Source: Owenia fusiformis (Eukaryota; Annelida; Polychaeta; Sabellida; Oweniidae). Taken from it: a stretch of 64,000 bases of DNA. The translations under genes and the position numbers were made by a program. The stretch spans positions 2,604,001 through 2,668,000 of the forward strand of contig CAIIXF020000006.1 of NCBI GenBank assembly GCA_903813345.2, written 5' to 3'. The notes under the pieces are model-generated. The model was not told the DNA's origin. It made no database searches and saw nothing but the letters and a program-made list of their open reading frames with translations. Numbering within the stretch: the stretch's first letter is position 1; every line of letters starts with the position of its first letter. Positions 29,115 through 59,508 of the stretch are shown piece after piece.

Positions 29115-30058
29115 AAAGTATCAAGATGCCTGCTTTAGTGCGTTCATATACATATGTTTTACTGTAAGTAAAGATGATCCAACTCTTGATAACACAGCGT
29201 TAATCAAATAGAATAGATAACAAATAGTAACACTTCCCATTGAGCAGGAATGCCAGACCAAATTCCGCGTGTTTTGTGTCATGAGTAGAATGTGGGAATT
29301 GTGGGGACAAGATAACCCCTTATTTATAATAAACATTCATGCACTCGGTTTGGCAAAACCAGAGCCCCTGTTTAGACTTGGGTGCAAGCGGTTTGAAACG
29401 CTAAGAAGCTAAAAACGCATCATGTTTCAACATTTGTATGTGGTTAATCTACCCCAGCTTGGTTTGAAGCACAAGTATCAATGACATGAATGAATTTTGA
29501 ACTTAGAGTTTTGAGATTTAAGAAGTATGAAAGTCAGAAAGACAATTGAACTTGATTTGTAAAAGAAATAACCAAATGGCAAAATAGGGCACTCGAAGTT
29601 AAGTTTTGTAAACAGCATGGCACATTTGGAGACTGACACATTGCAATACGCGTAAATGAGAATGAGAAGAGCATCGAGTGCGGTATAGGCGGTATTATTC
29701 GATAATCAAGTAGTGAAATTTTGTTATGTCTCTTTTTGTGGACGGTGTTCGGCGGTTGGTGTTCGGCGTTTGTAACAAATGGAAGGTAGTGACATTTTTC
29801 ATGTTAATGCCTTGTTGTCCCTCATATTCCTCATATAAAATATCCAAATATAAAATGTTCAGATTAGACCAGACTTCCAGTGTTCATTCACTTTAAATTG
29901 CATTTGAGATTTGAAAAGTATGATCATATATTTTTCTCAATTCTTAATGAATAAAGTATGATGCCATTGTACATTTGAAGTTATGAATTTGTATTGAGCT
30001 AGTTAATCCAATGTCCATTTGGCAATTGCACTGAATGGTAAGGAAATGGGAAACAAAG
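29115..30058. other. Stretch left of the 42-bp minisatellite
   Basis: Unrecognised DNA. A small GTGTTCGGCGGTTG / GTGTTCGGCGTTTG duplication near 29745-29772 recalls the GTGTTTGGC core of the adjacent array and may be chance. Confidence 0.4.
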
Positions 30059-31745
30059 GTGTTTGGCATTTGCACTATAGAAATACGAAAGGTGAAACAA
30101 GTGTTTGGCATTTGCACTAAAGAGTTACGAAAGGTGAAACAAGTGTTTGGCATTTGCACTATAGAAATACGAAAGGTGAAACAAGTGTTTCGCATTTGCA
30201 CTAAAGAGTTACGAAAGGTGAAACAAGTGTTTGGCATTTGAACTAAAGAGTTACGAAAGGTGAAACAAGTGTTTAGCATTTGAACTAAAGAGTTACGGAA
30301 GGTGAAACAAGTGTTTGGTATTTGCACTAAAGAGTTACGAAATGTGAAACAAGTGTTTGGCATTTGCACTAAAGAGTTACGAAAAGAAAAACAAGTTTTG
30401 GGCATTTACACTAAAGAGTTACGAAAGGTGAAACAAGTGTTTGGTATTTGCACTAAAGAGTTACGAAATGTGAAACAAGTGTTTGGCATTTGCACTAAAG
30501 AGTTACGAAAGGTGAAACAAGTGTTTGTCATTTGCACTAAAGAGTTACGAAAGGTGAAACAAGTGTTTGGCATTTGAACTAAAGAATTATGAAAAAGGTG
30601 AAACAAGTATTTGGCATTTGCACAGAGAGTTACGAAAGGCGAAATAAGTGTTTGGCATTTGCACTATAGAAATACGAAAGGTGAAACAAGTGTTTGGCAT
30701 TTGAACTAAAGAGTTATGAAAGGTGAAACAAGTGTTTGGCATTTGCACTAAAGAGTTACGAAAGGTGAAACAAGTGTTTGACATTTGCACTAAAGAGTTA
30801 CGAAAAGAAAAACAAGTTTTGGGCATTTACACTAAAGAGTTACGAAAGGTGAAACAAGTGTTTCGCATTTGCACTAAAGAGTTACGAAAGGTGAAACAAG
30901 TGTTTGGCATTTGAACTAAAGAGTTATGAAAGGTGAAACAAGTGTTTGGCATTTGCACTAAAGAGTTACGAAAGGTGAAACAAGTGTTTGACATTTGCAC
31001 TAAAGAGTTACGAAAAGAAAAACAAGTTTTGGGCATTTACACTAAAGAGTTACGAATGGTGAAACAAGTGTTTGGTATTTGCACTAAAGAGTTACGAAAT
31101 GTGAAACAAGTGTTTGGCATTTGCACTAAAGAGTTACGAAAGGTGAAACAAGTGTTTGTCATTTGCACTAAAGAGTTACGAAAGGTGAAACAAGTGTTTG
31201 GCATTTGAACTAAAGAATTATGAAAAAGGTGAAACAAGTATTTGGCATTTGCACAGAGAGTTACGAAAAGTGAAACAAGTGTTTGGCATTTGCACAGAGA
31301 GTTACGAAAGGTGAAACAAGTGTTTGGCATTTGCACTAAAGAGTAACGAAATGTGAAACAAGTGTTTGGCATTTGCATTAAAGAGTTACGGAAGGTGAAA
31401 CAAGTGTTTGGCATTAACACTAAAGAATAACGAAATGTGAAACAAGTGTTTGGCATTTGCACTAAAGAGTAACGAAATGTGAAACAAGTGTTTGGCATTT
31501 GCACTAAAGAGTTACGAAAGGTGAAACAAGTGTTTGGCATTTGCACTATAGAAATACGAAAGGTGAAACAAGTGTTTGACATTTGCACAGAGAGTTACGA
31601 AAGGTGAAACAAGTGTTTGGCATTTGAACTAAAGAGTAATGAAAAAGGTGAAACAGGTGTTTGGCATTTGCATTTAAGAGTTACGAAAGGCACTAAAGAG
31701 CTATGGAAAAGGTGAAACAAAAGTGTTTGGCATTTACACTAGAGT
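30059..31745. repeat. 42-bp minisatellite, about 40 units
   Basis: The unit is GTGTTTGGCATTTGCACTAA followed by AGAGTTACGAAAGGTGAAAC and AA. As 42 is a multiple of three and the unit lacks stops in some frames, long open frames appear on both strands (KQVFGICTKELRKV on plus, NTCFTFRNSLVQMP on minus). Unit variants (AAAGAAAAACAAGTTTTGGG, ACTATAGAAATACG, CACAGAGAG) recur in blocks. Units near 31650-31745 decay. No start context, splice sites or flanking gene support coding. Confidence 0.95.
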
Positions 31746-53876: not shown

Positions 53877-54917
53877 TCATGGTGTAAGAGCTTCAAATTC
53901 ATCAAAAGTCATAGAGTCAAGTCTTCTTGGCTGTGTTGGGACACCAGAATCATCAGATGCTTCTGTGTTCTCTTCGTCAGATATACTAGCGAGAGGAACT
54001 TTGATTTTATCAACTAAAGAATTGTTTGACTTTTGCGGAACTGAATTTGCCTGATCCCTTTTAGAATATACATCTCCTGGACTTTTGCTGAGATTTTTCA
54101 CGCTTATAATGCTATCATGAGTTTCAGTTGAATTATTTGCACTTTTTTCACAATCGTCTGTATTTTTACGTTCCTCAAGTTGTATGGTTACCGCCGAGCC
54201 ATTTGATTGGCTGGAGAGCCTCATAATGTCAACAGAACTTTCTGTATGTCCGCTGTTGTAGCTGTCTCTTTTGTTACCCTCATCACTAGACCCAGAACTT
54301 GCCTGAGAATTCCTGGGTGATCTCCTAGAGTTAGGAGGTGGGGGATTAATTTTTGGGGTTAAATTCAGGTTTAGTCTATTGCCGCTAGCATCCTGGGACG
54401 GACATGGCACAATTATTTTTTGTCCATTATCCACACCTCCATTGTTTGTGTTTAAAGCTTTTTTCTCGCCATCAGTTGAAAGTCTTTTTCCATATCCTTG
54501 TGTATCCCTCTGAGAGGGGTCACTATGCGTAGGTGTCTGTCCATATTTTGGTCCCCCAAGGACTCTATCCCCCGAGCTATTAACCACAGGAGTATGGTAT
54601 GTATAACTCTGGTAGAAGAGACTGTCCCCCCCTGCACCTACTCCACCCTGACCTGTAATCCGACTAGACGGTGTATACCACCCTTGGCTGTTACTCCCAC
54701 CATTTGTATCTGACTGACTCATGCTATATGAGAGACTATCTGATGACATCTCCTTGTGGCCGCTATCTGGTGATTCTGTGTAGTCTGACTTGATGTTTGT
54801 GTTCTCAAATGTTGCATTTTCTGCGCTGGCCTGTAAATGTTGGGCCTCAATCTCCTTGAAGGTTGGGATGTGGACTGGTTGACACTCAGGGGTATTTGGA
54901 TCTGTCAACACTGGAAT
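53877..54917 (-). CDS. NOS1AP: NOS1AP terminal exon (nearest acceptor)
   Basis: 347 codons including TGA, starting right after TTGCAG at 54918-54923 with IPVLTDPNTPECQPVHIPTF. A low-complexity, Ser/Asn/Gly-rich tail follows with YTESPDSGHKEMSSDSLSYS, NPPPPNSRRSPRNSQASSG and the end MTFDEFEALTP. The frame stays open upstream to a stop at 55317-55319, so any of five further acceptors (up to 55277) would add whole 24-residue blocks. Which acceptor is used cannot be told without transcripts. Confidence 0.85.
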   Translation of the reverse strand: MPVLTDPNTPECQPVHIPTFKEIEAQHLQASAENATFENTNIKSDYTESPDSGHKEMSSDSLSYSMSQSDTNGGSNSQGWYTPSSRITGQGGVGAGGDSLFYQSYTYHTPVVNSSGDRVLGGPKYGQTPTHSDPSQRDTQGYGKRLSTDGEKKALNTNNGGVDNGQKIIVPCPSQDASGNRLNLNLTPKINPPPPNSRRSPRNSQASSGSSDEGNKRDSYNSGHTESSVDIMRLSSQSNGSAVTIQLEERKNTDDCEKSANNSTETHDSIISVKNLSKSPGDVYSKRDQANSVPQKSNNSLVDKIKVPLASISDEENTEASDDSGVPTQPRRLDSMTFDEFEALTP

Positions 54918-57900
54918 CTGCAAGGGGAATGCAATAGAATTAAAGACTGCTTGACACTCAGGGCTGTTGGGATCTGTTAACACAGGAATCTGCAAGGAGT
55001 ATGCAATAGAATTAAAGACTGGTTGACACTCAGGGGTATTTGGATCTGTCAACACTGGAATCTGCAAGGAGAATGCAATAGAATTAAAGACTGGTTGACA
55101 CTCAGGGCTGTTGGGATCTGTTAACACAGGAATCTGCAAGGAGAATGCAATAGAATTATAGACTGGTTGACACTCAGGGGTATTTGGATCTGTTAACACT
55201 GGAATCTGCAAGGAGAATGCAATAGAATTAAAGACTGGTTGACACTCAGGGGTATTTGGATCTGTTAAAATAGGAATCTGCAAGGAGAATGCAATAGAAT
55301 TATAGACTGGTTGACACTAAGGGGTATTTGGATCTGTTAACAAAGGAATCTGCGAGAAGAATGCAACAGAATTAAGGACCAGTTGACACTCAGGGGTATT
55401 TGGATCGGTTAACACAGGAATCTGCGAGGAGAATGCAACAGAATTAAGGACTGGTTGACACTCGGGGGTATTTGGATCTGTTAACACTCAAATCTGCGAG
55501 GAGAATGCAACAGAGTAAGGACTGGTTGACACTCAGGGGTATTTAGATCTGTTGACACAGGAATCTGCAAGGAGAATGCAATAGAATTAAAGACACTGAG
55601 GGATTTGTCAAAACTGGAATTTACAAAGAGAAGGCAACAGAATTAAGGACCGGTTGACACTCAGGGGTATTAGGATCTGTTAACACAGGAATCTGGAAGG
55701 AGAATGCAATACAATTAAGGACTGGTTGACACTCAGGGGTATTTAGATCTGTTGACACAGGAATCTGCAAGGAGAATGCAAAAGAATTAAGGACTGGTTG
55801 ACACTCAGGGGTATTTGGATCTGTTAACACTGGAATTTGCAAGAATAATTCAATAGAATTATGGACTGGATGACACTCAGGTTATTGGAATAAAGGCTGA
55901 CACTCAGGAGTGTTGGGATCCACCAAACCAGGAATCAACAAGAAAAATACATTAGAATTTCACACTGGTTGACAATACAAGACAAAACGGATCAAAAGAT
56001 CCACAGATACAACTAATTCTACTCAATAAAATGATTTACTCTCAATTCTAATCTTCCCAATTTTTTCAGTTTAAAAAAGGTAAAAAAAAGTATGCATAAT
56101 AAATCAATATTCTAACCTCCATAGCAGAATAGCAAAGGAGTTGGTAATAGAATACTAAATCAAAAGAAAACATGAATTATTTTCACAATGTTATGTTTTT
56201 TGAAAAAATCATGTGGCACTGACTAAAATAAATATGCCACTATTATATTATGAATAGTAAGTGCTGACAATGGCAGATTTCTTCACAATCATCTAATTTT
56301 AAAACAGAGAAATACTTTTACCTGTGGTGTCATCGCCTGTAGTGCTTCAAACTTTTCCAATATGGATGGCATCTTCCTGTCGGCTGCTGGTCTCATTTCC
56401 AGTTCCTGTATCCTAGCAACCAGTTGATTGATGTGTTCCAAAAGGTCTCTGTTGTGTAGCAACAACTGGTGTGTACGGGCCTAAGATCAGAGCAGAGAAT
56501 CAGTAAAAAGAATCATGTTTATAAGTAATTTGCGATATCAGCATGAGGTCAAAATATCCTAATGGTCAGTTCTCATTACATTCTATTCCATTTAAAATAA
56601 AACAAAGATGGGTTTACTCTTGATATATTTCACGAGAATTGCAAAATTTAGGAAAACATGCATCCTCGGTCATATTTACTAAAACTCCCCTAGGTTACAA
56701 AACCTTGAAATGTAAACAGCTGTCAATCAAAACATTCTTGGTTGGTGGTGTTCAGAGAATACAGCTTTTACTGTATACAAAAAGTAAAATGTACCTGTGC
56801 CTCAATTCTGGCAGCTGATTCTGCAGAAAGCTGGTCTTTCAATAGCTGTACCTGTGCTATCGCAACCTGGAAATACAATTCATTCATTTATTCATTCATT
56901 CAATTCAATTTATTTCACCAAATGACTCTTTCTTAGATAACTTGTGGAGATGAGTTATATATTGGGGACTACAATTTGGAACCCATTTAGGAAAATGTTT
57001 CATGCAAAAAACTATTTTGTTTTCAAAACACTTTTCATCTTATTGGGGTTTAAGAACCCTTGCAAAATCATTTTTTCATAAATCAATACATTCTTGTAAC
57101 AAGGTGTTAACATGCAATATGTCACCACCTGCCATTCCCTACAGATGTTGAACGCTGCCTGCCGACAGCTTAACACCATACACAAAAATGTGGGAGACTA
57201 TAACAATATGTCATCATTTGTGGAGGTGACATAAAAACAGATTATTTTTACCTGGGTTTGTTGTGTTTGCTGCTCAAGTTGTTGTCTTAGCAACTGTATC
57301 TGATGATGTGTACTCAATGGTGTCTGTGCATCAGGTACATAACTTTGCGTCAACATGTGAGGTGTGCCACCTATTGGTGATGATATAGTTGCTCCCACCT
57401 GAATAGATAATATGAACCATATAAATAACAATTATGTAAATACTTATTATTCATTTGTTTTATTGACATGTACATGTTCAAAATACAGAATTAGCATACA
57501 TTAATTATCGATCAATGTTCAGCAGTGGCAGATATTCACATGTTATTTTCTTAGTATTGGTTAATATAATGGTTTTCAGTTTCACCCAATAGACGGTTTG
57601 CCATTGTGAATTATAAATCGAGAACAATGGAGTACAATTCAATCTTATTTATTAGTTTTGCACTCCCAATGTGGCCAAAATTTTATATAATTTTCAGTTC
57701 AATTTTTCATCGTGAGATATCACAGCCTTCTCTCAGTTTCCTTCTCGTGCATGGCAGAGATGGTCTGAGTATCAGAATGACAATTTTTGATTATTGACAA
57801 TCCATATTAAATTAATCAATTTGGTGAAAGATATCATTTACATAGTTTTATAATATTTAACCCCTTTTGGACCAACATGATTTATGGCATCAATCTTTTC

Positions 57901-59508
57901 ATAAAACTATATTTCAATATAGCCTTCCCATAATGCTTATCATGTTATAATTGTCAATTGACTGTCTACTGGTACCAATACAAAAATGCTGAAATAGTGT
58001 CGAGTGGTACATGTATTATTAAATACATTGCAAGATCAAAATAGAATGGACACTAAGAGAAGATAAATCAAGCAATGGTCCAATAAGGGTTAACCTTGGC
58101 AGTATTATTTCTACCTGTTTGGCATGCAAGGGTTGTTATGTATAAACTAAGAATTAGAAGACTTAATTGAAAAAGAGGGATTTATCTATGAGATTAATCA
58201 CTGCACAAGGATAAATTGTTAATGAAGGATTTTATAAGAATCACCTAAAAATGTATTATTTATCATTTAGGATCTAGACAGCTCCTATCCTAGCTTTAAG
58301 TTATTTTAGTAATTAACTGTTATTAAAATCTATGAGACTTAGATACTTGCCTCATATTATACAAAATATCTGTTCCCTTCTCCTTGCTTTTGTTATTATT
58401 CCCAAAATTGTATTAATACATAATACAAGAAATTCATAAAGGAGTGAGTAGACTCAACCCGTTTAGTTATGACCTAATGTAAAAAAATTTGTGAAATAAT
58501 TGGTATTAGTTATATAGTAAATATTCACAAGCCGAACACCCAATGTTTTGAGTCTTTCCCAAGGCAATCATCATAGGAAGGGTGGCAACTGTACAGAAAA
58601 AATGGATTTCTGAACACTGTAGATGACAAACAAGAATCCAGTTCAATTTTTAGATACCCTAACAACTCCCACGTTTGACCTCTAAATGTGCATACTTTTC
58701 AACTTGACAACTTAATACTATTCTAGTACAATTTGCATTCAGACAAGTTCTACAGTACTTGGTTTTACAATCTATATTAGATGAACACATGTTTTGTAAG
58801 TTTATAACCAGAAATGTAACTATTATTAAACCAATCACCAAGAGCAGAGAAAATACCAACCTGAGGGGGTGAGCCCACAGATTGTAAGAGCTGTTGAGGG
58901 GGTGAACCTACAGATTCTAAGAGCGCTGTTGCCTGTTCAAATGCACGCTCTGTCTCATTGTTGTCTTCTCTACTGTCATTGGGGTCCACTGGAATATTTG
59001 GCTGCTGTGTAGACGGCTGCTGGTCTGGAAATTAAAATAAACTAGTTTAAAAAATAATTCTTTAATACAGATCCATGTTCAATTTTTTAGCACAGATTCG
59101 ACATTGTGACTATTGGCCTTTTCAGATATGATATGTTTATCATCAGAGATTCTGCTTTTCTATAAATAACATTAAGGAGAGGCTTTTCAACTTTTTTTGC
59201 CAACATTTGATAAGGCTTAGAGTTAAAACTTTTCATCGGTACTGGTATTTTAATTTAATAGACTAATATTTGAAGTAGTTCAAACTATTCACAGGGCCTT
59301 TAATACTGAGACACACATGTGAAACAATAAAGTAGTTAAGTATTCATAGGGCATTTAACAGAGACTTACCTGTTGTATTTGGCTGTACTTTTCTCTCATT
59401 CTCTTCTGATGATGCGTCTTCTTCACGTTTTGCTGGCTCCACTGCGCTGATCTTGTGACATACCTCAAATGCCTGGCCTACTGTCCGTACAATACGCATG
59501 GCTTGACT
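53877..59508 (-). CDS. NOS1AP: NOS1AP (CAPON) orthologue, 3' six exons (partial)
   Basis: Adaptor protein that in vertebrates links neuronal nitric oxide synthase and other partners through an N-terminal PTB domain and a C-terminal region. Exons 59370-59508, 58861-59024, 57252-57398, 56795-56866, 56322-56480 and 53877-54917 join in phase and give 573 residues when the nearest acceptor of the last exon is used. MRIVRTVGQAFEVCHKI (local 4-20) is the diagnostic end of the NOS1AP PTB domain. Local 130-205 is a coiled coil with TPLSTHHQIQLL, VAIAQVQLLKDQLSAES and ARTHQLLLHNRDLLEHI, which match vertebrate NOS1AP closely. IPVLTDPNTPE at the start of the last exon corresponds to the vertebrate LPVLCDPTTP segment. 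The rest is a Ser/Asn-rich tail. The 5' PTB exons are not seen up to 64000. The last intron/exon boundary is multiplied by a 72-bp array. The C-terminus reads DEFEALTP and lacks the EIAV-type ending of the vertebrate protein. Confidence 0.93.
54870..55975 (-). repeat. 72-bp tandem array spanning the 3' splice site of the NOS1AP last exon
   Basis: About 15 units recur at 54913, 54985, 55057, 55129, 55201, 55273, 55345, 55417, 55489, 55560, 55616, 55688, 55760, 55832 and 55931 (position of ggaatc or its equivalent). On the minus strand each unit is about 45 nt of exon (the IPVLTDPNTPECQPV segment) plus 27 nt matching the end of the intron: a TTAAT branch-like motif, a pyrimidine-rich stretch and CAG. 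Twelve units keep the CAG. The first six are open and in frame. The upstream units carry indels, a TAG and lost acceptors. Two unit types (NTPEC and NSPEC) alternate in the open part, giving a 144-bp dimer. Confidence 0.9.
56322..56480 (-). CDS. NOS1AP: NOS1AP exon: end of coiled coil
   Basis: 53 codons, phase 0 at both ends, acceptor TGATCTTAG and donor CCACAG|GTAAAAG. Encodes ARTHQLLLHNRDLLEHINQL, then VARIQELEMRPAADRK and LEKFEALQAMTPQ. It is followed by a last intron of about 1.4 kb whose 3' end is the repeat array. Confidence 0.9.
56795..56866 (-). CDS. NOS1AP: NOS1AP exon: coiled coil
   Basis: A 24-codon exon, phase 0 at both ends, encoding VAIAQVQLLKDQLSAESAAR and IEAQ. Acceptor TTTCCAG, donor GCACAG|GTACAT. 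The exon is too small for ordinary ORF detection but matches the vertebrate protein closely. Confidence 0.9.
57116..57235. mobile_element. Short inverted-repeat element in a NOS1AP intron
   Basis: ATATGTCACCACCTGCC at the left faces GGAGGTGACATAA at the right. The inner part (ACAGATGTTGAACGCTGCC, then ATAACAATATGTCATCA) is repeated, diverged, at about 60022-60105 in the upstream intron region. About 120 bp, non-coding. Confidence 0.5.
57252..57398 (-). CDS. NOS1AP: NOS1AP exon: start of coiled coil
   Basis: 49 codons, phase 0 at both ends, acceptor TATTCAG and donor ACCCAG|GTAAAA. Encodes VGATISSPIGGTPHMLT, then TPLSTHHQIQLLRQQLEQQ. TPLSTHHQ is shared with vertebrate NOS1AP. Confidence 0.9.
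58861..59024 (-). CDS. NOS1AP: NOS1AP exon: linker after the PTB domain
   Basis: Acceptor TTTAATTTCCAG, donor CCTCAG|GTTGGT. Encodes a Gln/Pro-rich linker. It holds a small internal duplication, LLESVGSPPQ followed by LLQSVGSPPQ, made by two copies of about 30 nt. It ends in phase 0. Confidence 0.85.
59370..59508 (-). CDS. NOS1AP: NOS1AP exon: end of PTB domain
   Basis: Acceptor TATTTACAG, donor ACAACAG|GTAAGT, phase 0 in and phase 1 out. Encodes SQAMRIVRTVGQAFEVCHKI, then an acidic, Lys/Glu-rich segment. This is the most conserved part of the gene visible here. Confidence 0.92.

What the first reader, a model, noticed from the sequence alone, without database searches (positions are those of the whole stretch)
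54870..55975. A multiplied 3' splice site: 72-bp tandem array straddling the last intron/exon boundary of NOS1AP
Seen: each 72-bp unit on the minus strand combines 45 nt matching the start of the last exon (IPVLTDPNTPECQPV) with 27 nt of intron end, including a TTAAT branch-like motif, a pyrimidine-rich stretch and CAG. Twelve of about 15 units keep CAG. The unit is 24 codons, so the six nearest acceptors are all in frame and open. Inference: this is a self-contained acceptor module expanded as a minisatellite, giving a set of competing 3' splice sites. Isoforms would carry 0-5 extra 24-residue blocks just after the coiled coil, with part of the intron read as protein (NSIAFSLQ). I know of no named system of this kind.
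Basis: partly seen in the sequence, partly recalled or inferred. Interest (0 to 1): 0.85.

Follow-up and report, generated by a model that had tools for sequence, protein, structure and literature searches.

The report
Repeated splice junction in NOS1AP-like gene
A short stretch of DNA covering the end of an intron and the start of the last coding exon has been copied about fourteen times in a row in a gene resembling NOS1AP; similar copied junctions lie in several other genes examined in the same animal, so it is one case of a known kind of repeat, although how cells pick the right copy is an open and testable question.

Summary
On the minus strand, 14 alignable 72-bp units (plus about two degenerate ones) repeat 27 nt of intron end and 45 nt of exon start at the last coding exon of a NOS1AP-like gene; 12 of 14 keep CAG. 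The six nearest acceptors are in frame and open (0-5 extra 24-residue blocks); the six further ones truncate the protein. No match to the unit was found elsewhere in the genome.

The kind has a name: 'mirages', minisatellites over intron/exon boundaries, described in amphioxus, where RT-PCR suggested regular splicing. In this genome arrays cross exon edges at 8 of 110 CCT/myosin/proteasome exon pieces and 3 of 40 kinesin pieces, at six acceptors and five donors, no more often than random placement predicts. In seven acceptor-side cases compared, at least one upstream copy scores as well as the exon-adjacent one. AG retention in the older NOS1AP units matches neutral decay. With a PWM from 42 acceptors of this genome the units are middling to weak (19th-50th percentile).

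Best reading: ordinary tandem duplication that crossed a splice junction, mostly spliced at the exon-adjacent copy, with possible minor in-frame isoforms. No RNA data were available.

The parts
56322..56480 (-). exon before the array, donor ACAG|gtaaaagt at 56322/56321
   Evidence: open in phase 0; donor 6.8 bits
54918..56321 (-). last intron (1,404 nt), if the exon-adjacent acceptor is used
54873..55863 (-). 14 alignable 72-bp units, each 27 nt intron end + 45 nt exon start; 12 of 14 with CAG
   Evidence: TRF and wrap-around alignment
55864..56000 (-). about two degenerate units without CAG at the expected place
   Evidence: visible
54873..54944 (-). unit 0, exon-adjacent copy; acceptor at 54917, taken as the authentic one
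   Evidence: joins in frame to the rest of the last coding exon; score 5.2 in the PWM from this genome
54945..55304 (-). units 1-5, acceptors 54989, 55061, 55133, 55205, 55277; in frame and open
55305..55863 (-). eight older units; CAG acceptors 55349, 55421, 55493, 55564, 55692, 55764, all leading to truncation; two units without CAG
53878..54917 (-). last coding exon up to its stop codon
   Evidence: open frame 53877-55316; translation ends FDEFEALTP

Best explanation
[quoted passage not shown] the units far from the exon have decayed and those near it have been copied recently (read from the sequence). Such boundary arrays occur in other genes of this genome (shown). Most transcripts are probably spliced at the copy touching the full exon (54917), because the exon downstream helps to define it (inferred). 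The five next copies are in frame and can add 24-residue blocks at a low level with little harm (inferred). I see no sign of a dedicated regulatory system.
For: Array anatomy, CAG retention and single place found. Named precedent with units of intron 3' end and exon 5' part, and RT-PCR suggesting undisturbed splicing. Eight arrays crossing exon edges among 110 CCT, myosin and proteasome exon pieces and three among 40 kinesin pieces, on both sides, not more often than random placement (P(>=obs) 0.19, 0.98). In the seven acceptor-side cases compared (six others plus NOS1AP) at least one upstream copy scores as high as the exon-adjacent acceptor. Of these seven arrays four (83, 61, 104, 110 bp) have units that are not multiples of three, in conserved genes (CCT, myosin, proteasome, kinesin) where using a copy should usually break the protein; so the exon-adjacent copy presumably wins. 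AG kept in 6 of 8 older NOS1AP units, 6.04 expected by neutral decay.
Against: No transcript was examined; that the exon-adjacent copy wins is inference. In the PWM from this genome six upstream NOS1AP copies score 7.0-7.4 and one 8.4, above the 5.2 of 54917, and two AGs in units that lost CAG score 9.9 and 8.5; classic duplicated-3'-splice-site work (recalled, not read) favours the copy nearer the donor. In the six nearest units 5 of 8 distinct exon-block changes are synonymous (27% expected, P = 0.039, uncorrected), a weak hint that several copies have been translated.
Confidence: 0.72

Rival explanations
1. One reading: an expanded acceptor module that makes a regulated or at least substantial ladder of isoforms with 0-5 extra 24-residue blocks.
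For: Six in-frame open acceptors, the six best of 24 AGs that give full length, of similar score (5.1-7.0), so competition is plausible; 5 of 8 distinct exon-block changes among the nearest six units synonymous.
Against: Six further CAG acceptors, scoring 4.0-8.4, would truncate the protein; acceptor retention is neutral; similar arrays with units that are not multiples of three lie in CCT, myosin, proteasome and kinesin genes; mirages in amphioxus were said not to disturb splicing.
Confidence: 0.2
2. The real acceptor is now 55277 or another upstream in-frame copy, so the units downstream of it are a coding minisatellite and FNSIAFSLQ is constitutive protein.
For: 55277, 55205, 55133 and 55061 score 7.0 against 5.2 for 54917; the frame is open from 55316.
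Against: The 27-nt block keeps a pyrimidine-rich CAG end, and a branch-like motif in 10 of 12 CAG units, and its three distinct changes in units 0-5 are all non-synonymous, not a coding pattern, though three changes are few.
Confidence: 0.15
3. Assembly artefact.
For: Tandem arrays are hard to assemble; one assembly only.
Against: Units differ pairwise by up to 13 bases, with private changes and indels, which an artefact would hardly make.
Confidence: 0.02

Closest known systems
'Mirage' minisatellites of amphioxus (BflGb6, BflGb9, Adh3; PMC3087553, section 16 read; the Adh3 paper is not held and was not read)
   Same: Tandem units made of an intron end and the start of the next exon (BflGb6), many with splice signals; inner copies homogenised, boundary copies not; Adh3 units of 10-72 bp include this size.
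   Different: 14 alignable units here against 6 and 3 in the two BflGb6 haplotypes; unit a multiple of three and open in the nearest six. The genome's twelve contigs of 32-62 Mb do not fit amphioxus by recall. Length polymorphism and splicing could not be tested here.
IFI6/G1P3 (6-16) minisatellite with multiple splice donors (PMC4526556, passages; Turri 1995 not held, not read)
   Same: A minisatellite unit that carries a splice site, so that use of different units gives different mRNAs.
   Different: Donor sites there, acceptor sites here; use of further units is reported there, not tested here.
ABCA7 intron-18 VNTR (PMC5954066, passages)
   Same: Each 25-bp unit begins with a donor; use of one retains one unit in the mRNA.
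   Different: Donor side, in the intron, unit not a multiple of three; the paper links array length to altered splicing.
Intron gain by tandem duplication across an intron/exon boundary (potato RdRp gene, PMC4974935, abstract)
   Same: The duplication over the acceptor boundary copies branch site, polypyrimidine tract and 3' splice site.
   Different: There a donor from the exon part made a new intron; no comparable donor is found in this array.

Membership tests
mirage minisatellite | minisatellite-like tandem repeat spanning an exon/intron boundary | tested here: met
mirage minisatellite | many units carry the splice signal of the boundary | tested here: met
   CAG in 12 of 14 units
mirage minisatellite | concerted turnover: some copies nearly alike, others diverged | tested here: met
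   units 0/2/4 differ by 1-2 and 1/3 by 3, while neighbours among units 0-5 differ by 4-8; pairs within the eight older units differ by 2-11
mirage minisatellite | length instability between haplotypes | not testable with these tools
   one assembly, one place found in it
mirage minisatellite | regular splicing undisturbed | not testable with these tools
   no RNA data
minisatellite with multiple splice donors (IFI6 type) | donor consensus in the units | tested here: not met
   best GT in the array 3.4 bits, gene's five donors 6.2-12.9
selected multi-acceptor system (reader) | acceptors kept beyond neutral expectation | tested here: not met
   6 of 8 older units keep AG, 6.04 expected
selected multi-acceptor system (reader) | unit acceptors strong for this genome | tested here: inconclusive
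   top 12 AGs with a recalled general PWM, but 19th-50th percentile of 42 acceptors with a PWM from this genome
NOS1AP gene | PTB/PID domain upstream, then coiled coil | tested here: inconclusive
   PID 7.5e-13 on a joined exon translation that included one exon beyond the window; the coiled coil and the NOS1AP name rest on recall

The most novel reading that the evidence does not exclude
Boundary-crossing minisatellites are so common in this animal (11 arrays, one of them marginal, in 150 conserved exon pieces examined) that its spliceosome must routinely choose among near-identical copies of a splice site; where unit length and frame allow, as in this NOS1AP-like gene, the copies act as a ladder of in-frame alternative acceptors that adds 24-residue blocks to the protein.
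Probability: 0.22. Interest if true: 0.75.

Novelty: new member of a known kind. Interest (0 to 1): 0.5.

Why it matters
The single array is a new case of a named structure. What adds interest is the breadth: the same kind of array sits at exon edges of CCT, myosin, proteasome and kinesin genes here, with upstream copies whose local 3' splice-site score equals or exceeds that of the exon-adjacent one. Each is a natural duplicated-splice-site experiment that asks how the right copy is chosen, how much mis-splicing an animal tolerates, and whether such arrays feed intron gain. RNA reads over a dozen such loci would answer it.

Tried and rejected
Acceptors as unusually strong: a PWM of recalled general frequencies ranked the 12 unit CAGs as the top 12 AGs in 56321-54500. 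A PWM from 21, then 42 acceptors of this genome did not bear that out, so I withdrew it. Of the 42, 7 are from the NOS1AP-like gene itself and 35 were inferred from Pfam pieces (14 of 20 piece pairs, 21 of 43); pairs far apart in the profile were not tried, pairs without a fitting GT-AG solution were dropped, and some of the 35 may be wrong (a few score below 2).

RNA structure over one or two units: no better than shuffles, z -0.39, 0.25 and 0.24. Rfam at gathering threshold: nothing. Relatives of the last exon's start in genome contigs and viral contigs: none. No second match to it in the genome search. Coding constraint on the copies: P = 0.039 on eight changes, uncorrected. The contrast of intron- and exon-block mismatches between near and far units is P = 0.012 on cells but 0.29 on distinct changes. 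I leave both as inconclusive. The open frame in the six nearest units is no evidence by itself, as the unit is a multiple of three and its consensus has no stop. In one search a coordinate 55563 was off by one; the acceptor is 55564.

Counts of boundary arrays: one piece of 111 (C11:135225-135701, seven stops, lying over an array) was dropped before the test. Of the eight arrays, L018 has only a few real exon bases in its unit and is marginal. The NOS1AP array and the kinesin array at C2:23266359-23269174 are not in these counts, as they were not sampled blind. The first set was not fixed beforehand: I met the proteasome array while checking controls, and then looked at the whole set. The kinesin set was fixed beforehand as the first 40 listed matches (note); it gave fewer crossings (3) than random placement (4.7). 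Piece edges are profile-match edges, not proven exon ends; the junction of the 96-bp case in L012 is inferred by eye. In one search only copies at least 22 of 30 bases like the exon-adjacent junction were compared. Unit lengths in L060 vary, so some of its copies are in register by three and some are not.

The mirage paper was listed. I found no report of mirages outside cephalochordates in these searches, which says nothing beyond them; none of the searches used the word mirage.

Full report
What is there. On the minus strand the window holds a NOS1AP-like gene: six exons from 59508 to the stop at 53878 join in one frame, and a joined translation that includes one exon from just beyond the window matches the PTB/PID domain (7.5e-13). 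That it is NOS1AP rather than another PTB protein, and that the following part is a coiled coil, is recalled. Between the donor at 56322 and the last coding exon lies a 1,404-nt intron, about the last two thirds of which is a 72-bp tandem array.

Anatomy. Fourteen units can be aligned, with about two more degenerate ones further from the exon. Each has 27 nt like the intron end and 45 nt like the start of the last coding exon. CAG ends the intron block in 12 of 14 units; the two others read TAA and CAA. A branch-like yTnAy motif lies 23 nt before the junction in 10 of 12 CAG units (TTAAT in nine), and the AG-free stretch before the CAG is 26-37 nt. The array has no donor comparable to the gene's own. 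The genome search found the unit only here, with its stated limits.

Consequences for the protein. The six next truncate it after 1-47 residues. Of the 24 AGs from 55316 to 54608 that would give a full-length end the six unit CAGs score best, so if that protein is made, one or more of them is probably used.

Splice-site strength. With recalled general frequencies the units looked excellent. The acceptors sampled from this genome are very T-rich; a PWM from 42 of them puts the units at the 19th-50th percentile, and 54917 at the 21st. Two AGs 7 nt downstream of lost CAGs (55613, 55829) score highest of the 165 AGs examined, 9.9 and 8.5, and would stop the protein after one residue. Local score does not single out the exon-adjacent copy.

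Evolution. Units 0, 2 and 4 differ by 1-2 bases and units 1 and 3 by 3, which suggests recent copying of pairs; across all 14 units pairs differ by 1-13. Stops and indels lie in the older units. AG is kept in 6 of 8 older units against 6.04 expected from the mismatch rate there. In the six near units 5 of 8 distinct exon-block changes are synonymous, 27% expected, P = 0.039 uncorrected. This is too little to claim translation of the copies.

Not alone. To get control acceptors I fetched CCT, myosin and proteasome exons. One of the 42 acceptors lay in a tandem array, in a proteasome-family gene: a 104-bp unit, 2.7 copies, again intron end plus exon start. A check of all 111 pieces found eight arrays across exon edges: acceptor side in two CCT genes (83 bp, 96 bp), myosin (61 bp) and proteasome (104 bp); donor side in CCT genes (154 bp x 2.0; 53 bp x 20.2; 28 bp x 16.6) and myosin (34 bp x 4.0, marginal). 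Random re-placement of the 27 arrays gives 5.8 +- 1.9 crossings for 110 pieces against 8 seen (P(>=8) 0.19). A second set fixed beforehand, the first 40 kinesin matches, had three among 14 arrays: 33-bp (x 16.4) and 110-bp (x 2.9) units at acceptors, 57-bp units (x 9.7) at a donor; 4.7 +- 1.2 expected (P(>=3) 0.98). So arrays cross junctions no more often than chance placement in an array-rich genome predicts, at six acceptors and five donors in the two sets together; there is no sign of targeting to acceptors. In seven acceptor-side cases compared, upstream copies that scored at least as high as the exon-adjacent one were 2 of 2, 3 of 3, 1 of 1, 1 of 1, 6 of 8, 1 of 1 and, in NOS1AP, 7 of 13.

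Known kind. [quoted passage not shown] 150-160 bp; six and three units in two haplotypes), BflGb9 and Adh3 (10-72 bp), and says that Adh3 data and RT-PCR suggest regular splicing is not disturbed (PMC3087553, section 16 read). The Adh3 paper is not held. Donor-side relatives are IFI6 (passages) and ABCA7 (passages). The finding is therefore a new member of a known kind. The assembly has twelve contigs of 32-62 Mb (lengths), about 96% of its 498 Mb by my sum, which does not fit amphioxus by recall. Twelve chromosomes and about 0.5 Gb would fit the annelid Owenia fusiformis, also by recall; the species was not established.

Mechanism. Read from the sequence: the duplication, its position, in-frame and truncating acceptors, and similar arrays in other genes. 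Inferred: that the copy next to the full exon is used most, because in four of the seven acceptor-side arrays compared the unit is not a multiple of three and use of other copies should usually break conserved proteins, while the local splice-site score does not favour the exon-adjacent copy. In NOS1AP the nearest five copies keep the frame, so leaky use may be tolerated; whether it is substantial is unknown.

Noticed in passing
G000:C2:23266359-23269174 (L067): Kinesin gene: a 159-bp unit repeated 17.9 times, with an acceptor-like TTTCCATAG or similar and about 114 nt coding for the end of the motor domain.
   Followed up: partly
L060 680-1198 (G000:C10:37150209-37151406): Kinesin exon start (P-loop region, by recall) preceded by about 16 short units, most with ATTTCAG: a denser multiplied acceptor than NOS1AP.
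   Followed up: partly
G000:C9:37986009-37994334: Twelve myosin-head pieces covering the same profile part (about 18-30 to 80-84) in a row: looks like a cluster of mutually exclusive exons in a myosin gene.
   Followed up: no
L012 (G000:C11:134665-142722): One CCT gene carries three boundary-crossing arrays: 96 bp x 4.2, 53 bp x 20.2, 28 bp x 16.6.
   Followed up: partly
L031 about 1031-1042 and window 54932-54943: The intron ends of the proteasome and NOS1AP arrays share the 12-mer TTAATTCTATTG; chance or a shared motif is not known.
   Followed up: no
window 58862-58924: A 33-bp (11-codon) duplication, 1.9 copies, at the end of another exon of the same gene, next to its donor.
   Followed up: no
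window 30018-31690: 42-bp array of about 40 copies with long open frames on the minus strand (MPNTCFTFRNSLVQ-like repeats).
   Followed up: no
L006, window-scale coordinates 80536-81999: Repetitive open minus-strand frames of 392 (cut by the end of the stretch) and 95 codons.
   Followed up: no
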